This document shows, in pieces, positions 533 through 6,535 of a DNA stretch of 64,000 nt; the stretch's first letter is position 1; the number at the start of each line of letters is the position of its first letter. The translations under genes and the position numbers were made by a program. The notes beneath the pieces are model-generated. The model made no database searches, was not told where the DNA came from, and was given only the letters and a program-made list of their open reading frames with translations. The stretch is from Halarchaeum rubridurum (lineage in GTDB: Archaea; Halobacteriota; Halobacteria; Halobacteriales; Halobacteriaceae): positions 186,001 to 250,000 of the forward strand of contig NZ_BMOO01000003.1 in NCBI RefSeq assembly GCF_014647115.1, written 5' to 3'.

Positions 533-796
533 CTACGCGCCGTCGTCGTCGTCGTTTTCGTCGGCCGCGTGCACGTACCACCGCGTGCCGTTCGAGTACC
601 CCCAGCGCTCGGCGACGACGCCGGTCCGCTCGCCGTCGAATCGCCCGAGGAACTGCCCGATCTGGCTCGCTGAGAGCGGGAGGTCGGCGGCGAGGTCCTT
701 GCTCTTGCAGTAGAACGGGCCGGCGTCGAGGCGCTCGCCGAGGTGGCGTTCGAGGCGCGCGACCGCCTGGTTCCGCCGTACGTCGATGGACGACAT
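533..796 (-). CDS. Small DUF7123-like protein, possible wHTH
   Basis: An 87-residue protein with the pattern CKSKDLAADLPLSASQIGQFL followed by AERWGYSNGTRWYV. This matches a common haloarchaeal family (KSK..IA.E..LS...G..L, then WGYS..T.W.V) that I remember as DUF7123. The layout looks like a short winged-helix domain, so DNA binding is possible but inferred. The C-terminus is an Asp-rich tail. A longer frame exists, but the ATG at 796 is preferred because a TATA-like GTACTTATCC lies about 28 nt upstream, as expected for a leaderless message. Confidence 0.7.
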   Translation of the reverse strand: MSSIDVRRNQAVARLERHLGERLDAGPFYCKSKDLAADLPLSASQIGQFLGRFDGERTGVVAERWGYSNGTRWYVHAADENDDDDGA

Positions 797-820
797 CACG
801 GTCGGTGGTTCGGGGCCGTC

Positions 821-830
821 GGATAAGTAC
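821..830 (-). promoter_or_regulatory. TATA-like box for the DUF7123-like gene
   Basis: GTACTTATCC on the minus strand is centred about 28 nt before the ATG at 796. That places transcription initiation at the start codon. Confidence 0.5.
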
Positions 831-857
831 GATTGCCGAGATCGGTCCCGATTGGGA

Positions 858-872
858 CCCAAATTCGGCCCG
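858..872 (-). repeat. 15-bp 3'-flank repeat, copy 1
   Basis: The plus-strand sequence cccaaattcggcccg lies 6 nt beyond the stop codon of the membrane-protein gene at 879-1289. An identical 15-mer sits 4 nt beyond the stop of its paralogue at 4512-4928. A hairpin-capable ggtccc-gatt-gggacc at 844-859 overlaps copy 1. The role is unknown; a shared 3'-end or processing signal, or simply a trace of gene duplication, are the options. Confidence 0.6.
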
Positions 873-878
873 ACTCGA

Positions 879-1289
879 CTACGTGTTGCTCTGGTAGTAG
901 AGGACGAGGGCGGCGACGCAGGCGAAGACCTCCGGCAGGAAGGTGAACGGGCCGATGGGGTGGACGGGCCCGAAACCGAGGAGGAGCGGGACGAGCGGGT
1001 TCGTCGTCGCGGCGTAGAGGAGTAGCGCGGCCGTGAACAGCACGAGGCCGCGGCTGAACCCCGTCGGGACCGCCCGGTAGAGTCGGACGTACGCGACGAA
1101 CAGCGCCGCGAGGAGGACGACGGCGAGCGTGGCGAAGAACACCTTCAGGCGCACGAGGACGCCGAATACCCCCGGCGGGTAGAACGGCACGCCGAGTCGC
1201 GGGAGCGCGAGGACGACGCCGGCGGCGAGCGCGAGCGCGACGGCGAGGAGCGCCGCGGTGCGACGCAGGGCGTCCCCGTGCACGCTCAC
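879..1289 (-). CDS. Small four-TM membrane protein, last gene of ABC/exported-protein operon
   Basis: 136 residues, nearly all hydrophobic, with about four membrane segments. The GTG start at 1289 overlaps the stop of the upstream permease (GTGA), so translation is probably coupled; a longer open frame upstream is only the shadow of the permease. It is clearly paralogous to the protein at 4512-4928: LLAALFVAYVRLYR versus LLAALVVAYVGIYR, GPFTFLP in both, and ends YYQSNT versus FYQSQT. No catalytic motif is visible. Its position suggests an accessory membrane component of the exported-protein/ABC system, which is an inference. Confidence 0.75.
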   Translation of the reverse strand: MSVHGDALRRTAALLAVALALAAGVVLALPRLGVPFYPPGVFGVLVRLKVFFATLAVVLLAALFVAYVRLYRAVPTGFSRGLVLFTAALLLYAATTNPLVPLLLGFGPVHPIGPFTFLPEVFACVAALVLYYQSNT

Positions 1290-2443
1290 CCTCGGAGGGC
1301 CTCCACGGGCGAGTCGTTCGCGGCCTTCCACGCCGGGTAGAGCCCGCTCAGCACGCTGGCGAAGACGGCGAACGCGAAGCCGTAGAGGAGGTAGCGCGCG
1401 CTCGCCCACTGGAGGACGCCGGCCGGGTCGCCGGCGACCACCTGGAACATCACCGCGCCGACGGCGAGCGAGCAGGTCGCGCCGACGAGGCCGCCGAGCG
1501 TCCCGAGGAACGTCGCCTCGGTGAGAATCATCCGCAGGACCTCGCCGCGTCTGATACCGACGGCGCGCAGGACGCCGATCTCGCCGCGGCGTTCGACGGT
1601 GCTCATCAGCATCACGTTCAGGATGGCGACGCTCGCGACGACGAGCGAGATGCCGCCGATGCCGAGCAGCGCGAGCTGGAGGGTGTTGAGGAACGACCCG
1701 ATGTTCTCCTGGACGCTGGCGTAGCTGGAGACGCGCAGGACCTCCTCCTCGTCGCGGCCGTCGGTGTTGAAGTGCTCCTCCAGCGTGTCCGCGGTTTCGG
1801 TCGCGGCGTCGCCGGAGTCGGCGATGATGGTCACGCTATCGTAGTGGTCCTGGTCGGCGAGCCCGGAGATGGGGACGACGAGCTCGCCGCGACCGCCGCC
1901 CGGCCCGAAGCCGCTCCCGGAGTCGATGAACCCGCGGATACGATAGAGGTGCCCGTCGTACTCCACGGGGTCGCCGAGTTCGAGCCCGAGCTGTTGGGCG
2001 GTGCTGTTCGAGATGAGCGCGCCCGTCTGGAGGCGCTCCGGGGCAGTGCCCCTGCTGACGTCGTAGAGCGCGGCTGCGTCCGTCACGCCCGTCACGCTCA
2101 CGTACGCCTCCTGACCGCGCGAGGAGACCGTCGTCGAGTTCGTCTTCTGCGGTATCACCTCCGCGTCGGTGATGATGCTCCGTATCTCCTCGACCTGCTC
2201 TTCGGTCACGCCGTCGTAGTCGCTGTCCTGCCCGGCGGAGACCGACACCTGGTTCGTGAGGCTCCCGAGGTTCGACGTCGCCTGCTGTTGGAGGGCGACG
2301 CCGGCCATCCCGAGCGAGGAGATGGCGACGACGCCGATGACGATGCCGAGCGCGGCGAGCGCGGTGCGCATCCGGTTGCGTCCGAGGTTCCGCCACGCCA
2401 TCATCGCGCTCGGGAACCGCCAGAGCGCGTCCGCGACGCTCAC
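1286..2443 (-). CDS. MacB/FtsX-type ABC transporter permease
   Basis: 385 residues with the MacB layout: a first membrane helix near residues 25-45 (ALGIVIGVVAISSLG), a large extracytoplasmic domain, and three C-terminal helices of the FtsX domain. The conserved coupling segment VERRGEIGVLRAVG is present and the end is AANDSPVEALRG. Such permeases pair with LolD/MacB ATPases and usually act mechanically on extracytoplasmic substrates or export lipoproteins or peptides rather than importing solutes. The GTG start at 2443 overlaps the stop of the ATPase gene (GTGA). It is third of four genes in an operon with an exported CARDB-like protein, the ATPase and a small membrane protein. The substrate is unknown. 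Confidence 0.88.
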   Translation of the reverse strand: MSVADALWRFPSAMMAWRNLGRNRMRTALAALGIVIGVVAISSLGMAGVALQQQATSNLGSLTNQVSVSAGQDSDYDGVTEEQVEEIRSIITDAEVIPQKTNSTTVSSRGQEAYVSVTGVTDAAALYDVSRGTAPERLQTGALISNSTAQQLGLELGDPVEYDGHLYRIRGFIDSGSGFGPGGGRGELVVPISGLADQDHYDSVTIIADSGDAATETADTLEEHFNTDGRDEEEVLRVSSYASVQENIGSFLNTLQLALLGIGGISLVVASVAILNVMLMSTVERRGEIGVLRAVGIRRGEVLRMILTEATFLGTLGGLVGATCSLAVGAVMFQVVAGDPAGVLQWASARYLLYGFAFAVFASVLSGLYPAWKAANDSPVEALRG

Positions 2444-3105
2444 GACTGGATCACCCCGTCGACGATGCGGACGGTGCGGTCCGTGTAGTCGAGCATCTGC
2501 TCGTCGTGCGTCACGGCCACGACGGCGATGTTCTCCTCCTCTTTGAGCCGCGTGACCTCCTCCAGAATCGTCCGTCCCGTGTCCTGGTCGAGGTTCCCGG
2601 TCGGCTCGTCCGCGAGGAGGATGTCGGGTTCGTTGATGAGCGAGCGCGCGATGGCGACGCGCTGTTGTTGGCCCCCCGAGAGCTCGTCCGGGGTGTGATC
2701 GAGGCGGTCGCCGAGACCGACGCGCTTCAGGAGGTCGATCGCCCGGTCGCGTCTGTCCACCGAGGTGTCCCAGACGGACGGGAGCTCGACGTTCTCGACC
2801 GCGCTCAGCATCGGGAGGAGGTGAAAGTCCTGGAAGACGAACCCGAGGTTCGTCCGGCGCTCCTCCGTCAGCTCGTCCTCCGTGAAGTCCGTGACGTCGT
2901 GGTCGTCGAGGCGGACCGACCCGGACGTCGGCGTGTCGAGCAAGCCGATCATGTTGAGCATCGTGCTCTTCCCGGAGCCCGAGGGGCCGATTATCGTCAC
3001 CATCTCGCCCCGGTCGGCGTGGAAGTCGACGCCCTTCAGCGCCGTGACGGTCTGCGCGCCGCTCTCGTAGCGCTTCACGACGTCGTCGAGCTCGATGACG
3101 CTCAT
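2440..3105 (-). CDS. ABC transporter ATP-binding protein, MacB/LolD family
   Basis: 221 residues and a complete ABC ATPase: Walker A GPSGSGKST near residue 40, Q-loop VFQDFHLLP, signature LSGGQQQR, Walker B ILLADEPTGNLD and H-loop VTHDE. The length and the EPTGNLD motif place it in the LolD/MacB/FtsE branch, which energises FtsX-type permeases. Its ATG overlaps the stop of the upstream exported-protein gene (ATGA), and its own stop overlaps the permease start. It presumably forms a cytoplasmic homodimer under the permease at 1286-2443. Confidence 0.93.
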   Translation of the reverse strand: MSVIELDDVVKRYESGAQTVTALKGVDFHADRGEMVTIIGPSGSGKSTMLNMIGLLDTPTSGSVRLDDHDVTDFTEDELTEERRTNLGFVFQDFHLLPMLSAVENVELPSVWDTSVDRRDRAIDLLKRVGLGDRLDHTPDELSGGQQQRVAIARSLINEPDILLADEPTGNLDQDTGRTILEEVTRLKEEENIAVVAVTHDEQMLDYTDRTVRIVDGVIQS

Positions 3106-4511: not shown

Positions 4512-4928
4512 TCAGGTCTGGCTCTGGTAGAAGAGCACGACGACCGCGACCCCGACGAAGAAGTTCGGGAGGAACGTGAAGGGTCCGAGGCCGGTTATCG
4601 GCGGGAAGCCGAAGGCCATCGGGGCCAGCGGGTTCGACGAGAGCGCGTAGAGGAAGAGCGCGACGCTCGTCAACAGGAGGCTGAGTGTGTACTTGTTCGG
4701 GAGGTCCCGATAGATTCCGACGTAAGCGACGACGAGCGCCGCGAGGAGCACGAGGTTGAACGTCGAGACCGCGAACTGGACGCGGACGAACGTCTCCAGG
4801 AACGCGTGGTGGTCGATTGGCGGGGGCATCGGGACGACGGGGAGTGCGACCCCGGCGACGAGCCCGCAGAGCGCGGCGACGGCCGCGACGGCCGCGGTCT
4901 TCGTCAGCGGCGTGAGGTCACGCGTCAT
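4512..4928 (-). CDS. Small four-TM membrane protein, paired with wHTH gene
   Basis: 138 residues with four predicted helices and short charged loops (VGIYRDLPNKYTLSL, GLGPFTFLPNFF), ending FYQSQT. It is paralogous to the protein at 879-1289. The gene overlaps the 3' end of the winged-helix gene at 4918-5217 by 11 nt, so the two are co-transcribed and probably translationally coupled. No enzymatic motif is visible. A role as membrane partner or sensor of the adjacent DNA-binding protein is an inference from coupling alone. Confidence 0.75.
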   Translation of the reverse strand: MTRDLTPLTKTAAVAAVAALCGLVAGVALPVVPMPPPIDHHAFLETFVRVQFAVSTFNLVLLAALVVAYVGIYRDLPNKYTLSLLLTSVALFLYALSSNPLAPMAFGFPPITGLGPFTFLPNFFVGVAVVVLFYQSQT

Positions 4929-5217
4929 CGGTCTCTCCCTCGATGTCTGCTTGGTCGGCGATCTCCTCGAGGATGTCGAGGTTCTCGCGCATGCGGTCGG
5001 TCAGGAAGTACATCTTGCCGTAGTTGTCTCCGCGCGTCGTGACGACGTCGTTCTCCTCCAGCACTTCGAGGTGGTGTTGGACGGTCTTGTAGTTCAACGC
5101 GAGCTCGTTCGACAGCTGATTGGTGTTCATCGGACGCGTCTGGAGCGTTCGGACGATGCGCAGGCGGTTCTTTCCGCCGCGGGAACCGCCGATAAGCCAC
5201 CAGAGCAGCTGTCGCAT
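4918..5217 (-). CDS. ArsR-type winged-helix regulator
   Basis: 99 residues. The N-terminal WWLIGGSRGGKNRLRIVRTL leads into a winged helix (NQLSNELALNYKTVQHHLEVL) with wing GDNYGKMYFLT. The architecture and the YKTVQHHL recognition helix are those of haloarchaeal ArsR/winged-helix regulators. The hydrophobic LLWWLIGG N-terminus is characteristic of the family and may contact the membrane or a partner. The ATG at 5217 is chosen over a GTG five codons upstream. Its stop lies inside the start region of the downstream membrane-protein gene. Confidence 0.82.
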   Translation of the reverse strand: MRQLLWWLIGGSRGGKNRLRIVRTLQTRPMNTNQLSNELALNYKTVQHHLEVLEENDVVTTRGDNYGKMYFLTDRMRENLDILEEIADQADIEGETDDA

Positions 5218-5269
5218 CGCTCGAACGTGCACGGCGAGGGGAGGAAACAGTTACGTCTCGACGGCGGCG

Positions 5270-5788
5270 TCAGTCGTCGTCCGCGGCGAGTACCGCGCCG
5301 TCGGCGAGCGCGTGCTGGAGCACCCGCCCGATGGCGAGGTGTTGGGTCATCGCCTCGCGGACGCGTTCGCGCGCGGCCCGCTCGTCGGCGACCGTGTACT
5401 CCTTCGTGCGCACCATCTCGTGGACGTCGATTGCGCCCGACTCCTCCAGGCCGTGGAGGCGGGGGTAGACCGTCCCCGGGCTCAACTCGGCGTCGAACGT
5501 CCCTTCGAGGTCGTCCATCAGCTGCTTGCCGTGCGTGCCGTCGCTCCGGAGCGCGATGAGCGCGAGGAGCAGTTCGTCGAGGCTGTGTTTGACCGTAGCC
5601 TCGTCGAACGCGAACTCCCCCTCGACGCCCTCGGTCGACCGGAGGGCGTCGAGGAGCCTGGCGGGCGAGACGTCCGTCGAGGGACCGGGGCTCCGCCCGC
5701 CCCCGAGTTCGCGGAGCAGCGTCTCGACGCTCGCGCTCGCCGACTCCGTCCCGCTCGACTCGCCGTATCGCTCCGTCGTCCGTTTCAT
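5270..5788 (-). CDS. PadR-family transcriptional regulator
   Basis: 172 residues. The N-terminal half is acidic and unassigned; the second half is a PadR winged helix (LLLALIALRSDGTHGKQLMDDL, LSPGTVYPRLHGLEESGAI, KEYTVADE). PadR proteins are usually repressors responding to small molecules or stress. Two in-frame ATGs exist at 5809 and 5788. The second is preferred because the TATA-like CTTAATCC at 5818-5811 is centred 27 nt upstream of it, fitting a leaderless message. It is divergent from the winged-helix gene at 5881, and both promoters carry the same octamer. Confidence 0.82.
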   Translation of the reverse strand: MKRTTERYGESSGTESASASVETLLRELGGGRSPGPSTDVSPARLLDALRSTEGVEGEFAFDEATVKHSLDELLLALIALRSDGTHGKQLMDDLEGTFDAELSPGTVYPRLHGLEESGAIDVHEMVRTKEYTVADERAARERVREAMTQHLAIGRVLQHALADGAVLAADDD

Positions 5789-5810
5789 ACTTTCGCGTTC
5801 TACCTTCATC

Positions 5811-5818
5811 GGATTAAG
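5811..5818 (-). promoter_or_regulatory. TATA-like box of padR-type gene, half of a divergent inverted octamer pair
   Basis: On the minus strand the box reads CTTAATCC, centred 27 nt before the ATG at 5788. The same octamer, inverted, is the TATA-like box of the divergent gene at 5881. Confidence 0.55.
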
Positions 5819-5849
5819 GGGGGGAGTGCGGTTTCAGCGTTTGAGAAAG

Positions 5850-5857
5850 CTTAATCC
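5850..5857 (+). promoter_or_regulatory. TATA-like box of wHTH gene at 5881, second half of inverted octamer pair
   Basis: CTTAATCC is centred about 28 nt before the GTG at 5881, implying a leaderless mRNA. It forms an 8-bp inverted repeat with 5811-5818, centre to centre 39 bp. Confidence 0.55.
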
Positions 5858-5880
5858 AACCCGGCGGTGACAGACGAACA

Positions 5881-6234
5881 GTGCACTCCGAGCGGGTCGA
5901 CGAGCTCCTCGACGCTCTCGGCGACGCGCGTTCGCGCGCGATCCTCGCCGCGCTCAACGAGGAGCCACGCTCGGCGAAAGAGCTGTCGAACGCCCTCGAC
6001 GTCTCGCTCCCGACGGTCTACCGCCGCCTCGACACGCTGGAGGAGTCGGACCTCGTCACCGCCCAGACCACCGTCGCCGACGACGGGAACCACTACAAGG
6101 AGTACGCCTGCACGTTCGCGGAGCTCTCGATTCGGCTCGACGGCGACGAGTACGTCGTGGACGTCCAACGCGAGGAGGGGCTCGCGGATCGGTTCAACGA
6201 CCTCTGGACGGAGCTCGGCGGCGGAGAGGAGTAG
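5881..6234 (+). CDS. ArsR-type winged-helix regulator
   Basis: 117 residues: RVDELLDALGDARSRAILAAL, then the helix-turn-helix SAKELSNALDVSLPTVYRRL and a wing ending EYACTFAELSIRL. The C-terminal 35 residues are acidic. This is a classic haloarchaeal ArsR/HTH_20-type regulator. The GTG start is supported by the TATA-like box 28 nt upstream. The next gene, a three-TM protein, starts 4 nt after the stop, so the two form an operon. This regulator plus small-membrane-protein arrangement is also seen at 4512-5217. Confidence 0.83.
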   Translation: MHSERVDELLDALGDARSRAILAALNEEPRSAKELSNALDVSLPTVYRRLDTLEESDLVTAQTTVADDGNHYKEYACTFAELSIRLDGDEYVVDVQREEGLADRFNDLWTELGGGEE

Positions 6235-6238
6235 GTTT

Positions 6239-6535
6239 ATGCGCGCGCTGACACACCCTCACGTCGTGACCTCGCTCGCGTCGTACGTCCTCGTCGCCGT
6301 CCGGCTGGCGACGTTCGCGCTCACGCTCGGGTTGACGCTCATCAGCTTCCGGGCGTATCGGCGTGCGGGGACGCGTCGCCTGGAGTACGCCTTCGTCGGC
6401 TTCGCGTTCGTGAGCATCGGCGTCGGGCTCACGGCGCTCGCCGACCAACTCCCGGTCGGTCCCGTCTTCCACATCGGCGCGACGCTCCCGTTCCTCGTCG
6501 GGTTCGCCACGCTCTACGTCTCGCTCTACCGCTGA
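6239..6535 (+). CDS. Small membrane protein, DUF7521-like
   Basis: 98 residues with three helices: VLVAVRLATFALTLGLTLI, YAFVGFAFVSIGVGLTAL and LPFLVGFATLYVSLY, with a basic loop RAYRRAGTRR. It matches my memory of the haloarchaeal DUF7521 family, which recurs next to ArsR-like genes. The start 4 nt after the regulator's stop shows co-expression. The function is unknown; the coupling suggests that it modulates or senses for the regulator. Confidence 0.75.
   Translation: MRALTHPHVVTSLASYVLVAVRLATFALTLGLTLISFRAYRRAGTRRLEYAFVGFAFVSIGVGLTALADQLPVGPVFHIGATLPFLVGFATLYVSLYR

What the first reader, a model, noticed from the sequence alone, without database searches (positions are those of the whole stretch)
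4512..6535. Cluster of three HTH regulators with coupled small membrane proteins
Seen: wHTH (4918-5217) overlaps a four-TM gene (4512-4928); wHTH (5881-6234) is 4 nt from a three-TM gene (6239-6535); a PadR gene sits between. In both pairs the regulator precedes the membrane protein on the same strand. Inference: the pair could be a minimal membrane-sensor/transcription-factor unit, with the membrane protein sequestering or modulating the regulator.
Basis: partly seen in the sequence, partly recalled or inferred. Interest (0 to 1): 0.55.

Follow-up and report, generated by a model that had tools for sequence, protein, structure and literature searches.

The report
Archaeal regulator paired with membrane protein
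Two small DNA-binding regulators in this salt-loving archaeon each sit directly before a small membrane protein, an arrangement that recurs widely in archaea and looks like a simple two-gene way of passing a signal from the membrane to the genes, although no experiment has yet shown this.

Summary
The window is from a haloarchaeon of the Halarchaeum lineage. It has two wHTH + small-membrane-protein pairs, one per strand, with a PadR gene between them. Both pairs recur far above chance. DUF7521 (PF24365) follows a wHTH of the window's type at 236 of 260 distinct places examined in Halobacteria; about 0.6 of the first 137 would be expected by chance. The other wHTH type ('LWWLIGG') is followed by a 3/4-TM protein at 77 of 80 loci across several archaeal phyla. 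In methanogens, DUF7521-like genes follow Lrp/AsnC-type regulators instead. Covariation in the DUF7521 pairs links the regulator's C-terminal helix to the two predicted cytosolic parts of the membrane protein. This was not reproduced in the smaller second family, and fused AlphaFold models gave no trustworthy interface. A MacB-type ABC exporter adjoins the pair in several lineages, the window included. Best reading: a membrane protein that binds and modulates its co-encoded regulator, working like LytTR Regulatory Systems or SdpR/SdpI without belonging to either. Binding direction, signal and targets are untested.

The parts
4512..4928 (-). 4-TM-type membrane protein of pair 1 (P0001)
   Evidence: no Pfam family; relatives in 34 of 242 Halobacteria genomes
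4918..5217 (-). ArsR-type wHTH of pair 1 (P0002), 'LWWLIGGSRGG' type
   Evidence: HTH_5 38.7 bits; alignments A1, A2
5270..5809 (-). PadR-type regulator (P0003); start probably at 5788
5811..5857 (.). divergent promoter region, inverted GGATTAAG ... CTTAATCC about 30 nt from the starts at 5788 and 5881
   Evidence: conserved in L118
5881..6234 (+). wHTH of pair 2 (P0004), HTH_20/ArsR-like
   Evidence: HTH_20 44.3 bits
6239..6535 (+). 3-TM membrane protein of pair 2 (P0005), DUF7521
   Evidence: PF24365 42.5 bits
3102..4346 (-). CARDB-domain protein with N-terminal signal-like and C-terminal TM segments (the two segments judged by eye)
2440..3105 (-). ABC ATPase of the exporter
1286..2443 (-). 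MacB/FtsX-type ABC permease
   Evidence: MacB_PCD 77.0 and FtsX 64.3 bits; start uncertain
879..1283 (-). second membrane protein of the pair-1 family, without an adjacent wHTH
   Evidence: the same-genus locus L122 has a wHTH here

Best explanation
Each pair is a minimal two-gene membrane-to-DNA switch. The first gene makes a small wHTH regulator; in the pair-1 type it has no sensor domain and mostly no cysteine. The second gene, translated from an overlapping or abutting start, makes a 3- or 4-TM protein whose basic loop (YR-x-YRR / IYRDLPNK) and C-terminus face the cytosol. The regulator docks through its C-terminal helix on that cytosolic face. A change in the membrane or an outside ligand alters the docking, frees or re-engages the regulator, and changes transcription of its own operon and often of neighbours such as the MacB-type ABC exporter beside pair 1. 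Shown: gene order, overlap, recurrence, absence of a sensor domain, exporter adjacency in a minority of loci. Supported: the contact surface, by covariation in the DUF7521 pairs only. Inferred: topology (positive-inside), direction of control, the signal, autoregulation, targets.
For: DUF7521 in 115 of 116 Halobacteria genomes; wHTH directly upstream, same strand, at 126 of 137 places plus 110 of 123 further distinct places, in 20 of 23 clusters at 50% identity; 4-nt overlap the commonest junction, 46 of 126. Pair-1 type: 29 of 31 places by start choice; 77 of 80 named loci in Halobacteria, ANME-1, ANME-2/Methanosarcinales, Methanomicrobiales, Methanobacteriaceae, Methanomassiliicoccales, Thermoplasmatota, Hydrothermarchaeota and a Thorarchaeota MAG. 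The regulator class changes while the DUF7521-like partner stays: Lrp/AsnC HTH before DUF7521 in 6 methanogen loci (class confirmed by Pfam for one). 70 of 75 pair-1-type wHTHs lack cysteine, median 94 aa. Covariation, 236 pairs, 197 non-redundant: all 8 top-60 couplings of the wHTH C-terminal helix fall on predicted cytosolic DUF7521 columns (23% of columns); within-cluster shuffles give at most 6 (mean 2.9) in 40; the same bias with MIp (13 of 21), in two disjoint clusters (3 of 5, 4 of 8) and in all 8 random halves. Positive-inside: 3.5 K+R in loop 1 against 0.2 in loop 2. MacB-type ATPase >=170 bits within 2.5 kb in 10 of 80 pair-1-type loci against 1 of 134 DUF7521 loci, that one holding both pairs.
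Against: No confident interface from AlphaFold2 (pTM 0.48; 0.62 with a linker-spanning helix). The covariation pattern is not reproduced in the pair-1 family (4 block couplings, shuffle mean 3.0, max 8; Meff 60), and the block was chosen after seeing the first ranking. Within-cluster shuffles also exceed the random expectation, so part of the signal is subfamily history. Some membrane genes lack a regulator: the window's own 879-1283, L055, and 24 of 260 DUF7521 places, which suggests some function of their own. No fusion protein was found. No experiment.
Confidence: 0.55

Rival explanations
1. The wHTH is an ordinary dedicated autorepressor and the membrane protein is simply the effector it controls (envelope stress protein, channel, small transporter). 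They do not touch; the pair is conserved because the effector needs its own switch.
For: Classical ArsR logic; both wHTHs belong to ArsR-like Pfam families; membrane genes exist without a regulator (L055; window 879-1283; DUF7521 misses); fold models show no trustworthy interface.
Against: The pair-1-type regulators mostly have no cysteine and no ligand domain, so the input must come from elsewhere; regulator classes are exchanged next to DUF7521; the covariation is focused on the cytosolic face.
Confidence: 0.27
2. The membrane protein tethers or activates the regulator: the wHTH is active only when bound at the membrane, a split version of one-component transmembrane regulators.
For: Same anatomy and the same contact evidence; fused transmembrane regulators are reported as widespread in bacteria and archaea (PMC10269533, title and start of abstract in a listing only).
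Against: No fused version found in this set; nothing separates activation from inhibition here.
Confidence: 0.1
3. A toxin-antitoxin or immunity unit: a small membrane toxin, or an SdpI-like immunity protein, with its regulator.
For: Small membrane protein plus regulator, many paralogues per genome (1-12), some copies in a segment shared between genomes, exporter nearby in some loci.
Against: Near-universal presence in Halobacteria (115 of 116); no SdpI-domain match among the Pfam hits at E<=1.
Confidence: 0.05

Closest known systems
LytTR Regulatory Systems (HdrRM, BrsRM of Streptococcus mutans; PMC6193735, passages read)
   Same: Two-gene operon, DNA-binding regulator first, transmembrane protein without an obvious enzymatic domain second; several per genome; some co-transcribed with ABC transporter genes; membrane partner as the presumed switch.
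   Different: The regulators here are winged HTH (ArsR-like or Lrp-like), not LytTR; other membrane families (DUF7521, an unnamed 3/4-TM family); archaeal promoters; inhibition and autoregulation untested here.
SdpR/SdpI of Bacillus subtilis (PMC1626106 and PMC6818787, passages read)
   Same: An autorepressor gene (ArsR-like: recalled, and by the NCBIfam SdpR model) followed by a polytopic membrane protein that sequesters the repressor at the membrane.
   Different: No SdpI domain match; SdpR model only 27.3 and 31.9 bits against a cut-off of 100; no Sdp-type toxin seen at these loci.
One-component transmembrane transcription regulators and ArnR/ArnR1 (PMC10269533 listing; ArnR from passages of PMC13286277)
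   Same: An HTH linked to the membrane.
   Different: There the HTH and TM parts are one protein; here two separate genes, and no fusion was found.
BceRS-BceAB type modules (recalled, no call)
   Same: A regulator next to a MacB/FtsX-type ABC exporter.
   Different: No kinase or response regulator is part of the pair; the exporter is present in only a minority of loci.

Membership tests
DUF7521 (PF24365) | match above Pfam's gathering score | tested here: met
   6239-6535: 42.5 bits, cut-off 27
DUF7521 (PF24365) | the 4512-4928 protein is a distant member | tested here: inconclusive
   no Pfam hit; hhalign with the wider profile aligns all three helices in register but probability 6%, one-pair E 0.006
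ArsR/SmtB metalloregulators | ArsR-type HTH domain | tested here: met
   HTH_5 38.7 bits for wHTH-1 and 33.8 for wHTH-2, cut-off 22
ArsR/SmtB metalloregulators | NCBI metalloregulator model above its cut-off | tested here: not met
   NF033788: 37.6 and 32.5 bits, cut-off 55
ArsR/SmtB metalloregulators | cysteine metal ligands (pair-1 type) | tested here: not met
   70 of 75 have no cysteine; ligands made only of His/Asp were not tested
PadR | match above Pfam's gathering score | tested here: met
   30.7 bits, cut-off 27
LytTR Regulatory System | LytTR DNA-binding regulator | tested here: not met
   only HTH families give meaningful matches
LytTR Regulatory System | two-gene operon, regulator first, membrane protein second | tested here: met
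   (gene order and spacing; co-transcription not shown)
LytTR Regulatory System | membrane protein inhibits the regulator | not testable with these tools
   needs deletion of the membrane gene
LytTR Regulatory System | direct repeats upstream of the operon promoter | not tested
   upstream regions only viewed; no repeat statistics
SdpR/SdpI | SdpI-family membrane protein | tested here: not met
   no SdpI match at E<=1 among the Pfam hits of the window proteins or of 8 relatives
MacB-type ABC exporter (neighbour) | MacB_PCD and FtsX domains in the permease | tested here: met
   77.0 and 64.3 bits for window 1289-2443

The most novel reading that the evidence does not exclude
A pan-archaeal class of two-gene signalling units, outside two-component and one-component systems: a bare wHTH regulator of one of several families (ArsR-like, HTH_20-like, Lrp/AsnC) paired with a small 3-TM receptor of one superfamily (DUF7521 plus the unnamed 3/4-TM family), docking by the regulator's C-terminal helix on the receptor's YR loop. 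Haloarchaea would carry up to a dozen such units, and some would control MacB-type exporters as an archaeal counterpart of peptide-sensing export modules.
Probability: 0.35. Interest if true: 0.75.

Novelty: new variant of a known kind. Interest (0 to 1): 0.6.

Why it matters
How archaea pass signals from the membrane to promoters is largely open. If the pairs work as proposed, an annotated but unexplained family (DUF7521, in 115 of 116 Halobacteria genomes sampled) and an unnamed family found in several archaeal phyla become candidate receptors with a named partner, a named contact surface and a simple genetic test: delete the membrane gene alone. The text searches 'DUF7521' (0 papers) and searches listed no paper whose title or opening abstract describes the pairing; most subscription journals and all bioRxiv preprints are missing from that library.

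Tried and rejected
Fusion proteins as evidence of contact: none in the DUF7521 set. The predicted topology of DUF7521 (N-terminus outside) would forbid an N-terminal wHTH fusion, so absence says little. AlphaFold2 of in-frame read-through pairs: inconclusive. Foldseek of the second model against PDB: only the wHTH half gives sensible hits, best P. furiosus heat shock regulator 2p4w, E 1.9e-5. Homology of the two membrane families by hhalign: suggestive, not established. Replication of the covariation pattern in the second family: failed to reach significance. Methanosarcina MM2440-MM2441 (PMC3510493, passages): regulator is the second gene; set aside as unrelated. PMC5898192 on conserved archaeal membrane proteins (passages): this pair not mentioned in the passages seen. 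CsmR paper PMC13286277 (passages): no such partner mentioned in them. tblastn on plasmids: 1 and 5 records, hypothetical proteins or no annotation under the matches. Rows dropped before counts: 8 sub-threshold DUF7521 places of the 120 listed were not used (112 used); 5 duplicate loci (L197, L199, L202, L204, L207) removed from the second census and the covariation set; pairs over 95% identical removed; in fold alignment A4 one near-duplicate in-frame pair (L252) was left out (29 of 30 fused rows used) and 22 of 45 regulator-only rows were used; A5 used 12 of 21 in-frame pairs. The set L411-L450 was picked by hand from mid- and low-scoring places, so it is a sample, not a census.
Full report
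WHAT IS THERE. wHTH-1 (4918-5217, -) overlaps the next gene, a 138-aa membrane protein (4512-4928, -), by 11 nt; wHTH-2 (5881-6234, +) is 4 nt from a 98-aa membrane protein (6239-6535, +) which is DUF7521 (PF24365, 42.5 bits, cut-off 27). PadR (5270-5809, -) precedes wHTH-1 and diverges from wHTH-2. The shared promoter region holds GGATTAAG (5811-5818) and CTTAATCC (5850-5857), each about 30 nt from a start codon (5788 for PadR if the second ATG is used, 5881 for wHTH-2); it is conserved in L118. Downstream of pair 1, same strand: CARDB protein, ABC ATPase, MacB/FtsX permease, then a second membrane protein of the pair-1 family (879-1283, 46% identical). In L122 the second membrane gene has its own wHTH, so the window probably lost one; gain in L122 is not excluded.

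RECURRENCE OF PAIR 2. DUF7521 was found in 115 of 116 Halobacteria genomes, 1-12 copies each, and in 25 of 25 genomes of the window's family. Of 120 places listed for that family I used all but 8 sub-threshold ones; with 25 further class-wide places that makes 137, of which 126 have a wHTH of the window's type directly upstream on the same strand. Collapsed to clusters at 50% identity, 20 of 23 have it. A second set of 128 loci (88 mostly best matches per genome, 40 hand-picked mid- and low-scoring) gave 81 of 88 and 34 of 40; without 5 duplicates, 110 of 123. Together 236 of 260 distinct places. Control from the same loci: 7 non-partner wHTH hits in 510,733 flanking bases, i.e. about 0.6 expected by chance for 137 places within 650 nt on the same strand (my arithmetic). 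The commonest junction is the 4-nt overlap (46 of 126; median spacing 0). Misses include a subgroup (SLSGLAMVAFAANAY type) without a regulator, a second gene of a tandem DUF7521 pair or a lone copy, and seven best-match copies.

RECURRENCE OF PAIR 1. Close relatives of the membrane protein occur in 34 of 242 Halobacteria genomes. In 29 of 31 places a wHTH of the window's type overlaps or abuts the membrane gene (spacing mostly -11, -8, -4); one of the two misses (L039) does have the wHTH and failed only my start-codon choice, the other (L055) lacks it. A scan of the genome collection (84,980 species) with the wHTH alignment A2 gave 445 relatives, 80 kept. In 77 of 80 the next gene is a 3/4-TM protein of the same family; of the three misses L240 has the gene in a broken frame, L272 ends 40 bases after the wHTH, L246 is a real miss. 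Carriers include ANME-1, ANME-2, Methanosarcinales, Methanomicrobiales, Methanobacteriaceae, Methanomassiliicoccales, Thermoplasmatota, Hydrothermarchaeota, Pyrohabitans and a Thorarchaeota MAG; MAG assignments are the records' own. In a phylum-wide search (148 genomes) 34 had the wHTH, and 27 of its 30 loci had the membrane gene. No Pfam family above its cut-off covers the membrane proteins tested.

REGULATOR EXCHANGE. Weak DUF7521 matches outside Halobacteria were read at seven loci (L210-L216). Six (L211-L216) have an Lrp/AsnC-like HTH gene directly upstream instead of an ArsR-like one, and five of these show a third gene directly downstream (L213's lies in the listed ORFs too but overlaps others); Pfam confirms the regulator class for L211 (HTH_24 51.0, AsnC_trans_reg 32.8 bits) and hints at a methanogen output domain in its third protein, below the cut-offs. 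L210 has no HTH. The membrane partner is thus kept while the regulator class changes.

ARE THE TWO MEMBRANE FAMILIES ONE? Both have a basic loop with an invariant or frequent tyrosine between TM1 and TM2 and a frequent Ser near the C-terminus. hhalign with the wider profile aligns 89 columns in register, but probability is 6% and the one-pair E-value 0.006; I treat common origin as possible, not shown.

CONTACT. Positive-inside counts (3.5 K+R in loop 1, 0.2 in loop 2) put loop 1 and the C-terminus of DUF7521 in the cytosol. Mean-field DCA on 236 pairs (Meff 118) gave a top inter-protein coupling of 2.21; 12 full shuffles gave 0.88-1.51, and within-cluster shuffles up to 1.91. After seeing that six of the top 25 linked the wHTH C-terminal helix to loop 1 or the C-terminus, I tested all segments on 197 non-redundant pairs: this helix has 8 of the top 60 couplings, 5 on loop 1 and 3 on the C-terminus, none on the other 77% of columns; 40 within-cluster shuffles gave a mean of 2.9 and at most 6 in that block. 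MIp gives 13 cytosolic of 21; two disjoint subsets give 3 of 5 and 4 of 8 (top 60); eight random halves give 43-78% cytosolic against 23% expected. Against this: the block was chosen post hoc, at top 200 the bias weakens to 11 of 21, and the same test in the pair-1 family (85 pairs, Meff 60) gave 4 block couplings against a shuffle mean of 3.0 and maximum of 8, i.e. no confirmation. AlphaFold2 on in-frame read-through pairs: both halves fold well, relative placement not reliable (pLDDT 81, pTM 0.48; pLDDT 91, pTM 0.62 with one helix running through the two-residue linker).

NEIGHBOURS. Window-type ABC ATPase (>=170 bits) lies within 2.5 kb of the pair in 10 of 80 pair-1-type loci: Halarchaeum, Halorubrum/Halohasta and Haloferax (divergent), ANME-2/Methanosarcinales, Methanophagales, Methanobacteriaceae; among 134 DUF7521 loci only L122, which holds both pairs. 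In 40 wider loci (8 kb each side where the contig allowed) a strong ATPase (>=200 bits) appears in L301 and L324, and a weaker divergent one (62-65 bits) next to the pair in L327-L329. The Methanobacteriaceae permeases beside the pair are MacB_PCD + FtsX, as in the window. The exporter is thus a recurrent but minority neighbour.

MECHANISM AND COMPARISON. The simplest account is a regulator held or shaped by a co-made membrane partner. This is how LytTR Regulatory Systems (passages of PMC6193735) and SdpR/SdpI (passages of PMC1626106) are described, including, for LytTR systems, regulator-first order and ABC transporter genes likely co-transcribed with two S. mutans operons. The archaeal pairs fail the defining LytTR and SdpI domains, so they are not members; they may work alike. 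Whether the partner inhibits or activates, what it senses and what is controlled are open. I found no paper on the pairing, within a library that lacks most subscription journals.

VERDICT. Observation confirmed; interpretation partly supported and broadened from a local curiosity to an archaea-wide gene pair. Confidence 0.55 in the docking model, 0.27 in the plain repressor-effector rival.

Noticed in passing
L081:461-2722 and L005, L017, L067, L070, L072-L077, L079, L080, L082: In part of the window's family one wHTH-DUF7521 pair follows an Orc1/Cdc6 gene, in some genomes near position 1 of the first contig (Cdc6_C 113 bits in L081; Orc1-like ORF in 17 of 262 loci, duplicates included), i.e. 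probably beside a replication origin.
   Followed up: partly
L211-L216: Methanogen operon of Lrp/AsnC-type HTH, DUF7521-like 3-TM protein and a third protein with weak ATC_hydrolase / methanogen output domain 1 similarity.
   Followed up: partly
L091, L128, L129 and others: Tandem DUF7521 genes behind a single wHTH (for example G003:C2:295235 and 295543).
   Followed up: no
L093-L103, L034: A wHTH-DUF7521 pair lies in a strongly conserved segment (about 85-97% DNA identity over 4-5 kb) shared by several genomes of the family, sometimes twice in one genome; looks like a plasmid or mobile backbone.
   Followed up: no
window 879-1283: Second 4-TM-type membrane gene without a regulator; in the same-genus locus L122 a wHTH precedes it.
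   Followed up: partly
window 533-862: DUF7123 small protein (30.9 bits) downstream of the second membrane gene; a similar protein lies near the pair in 5 of 80 pair-1-type loci.
   Followed up: no
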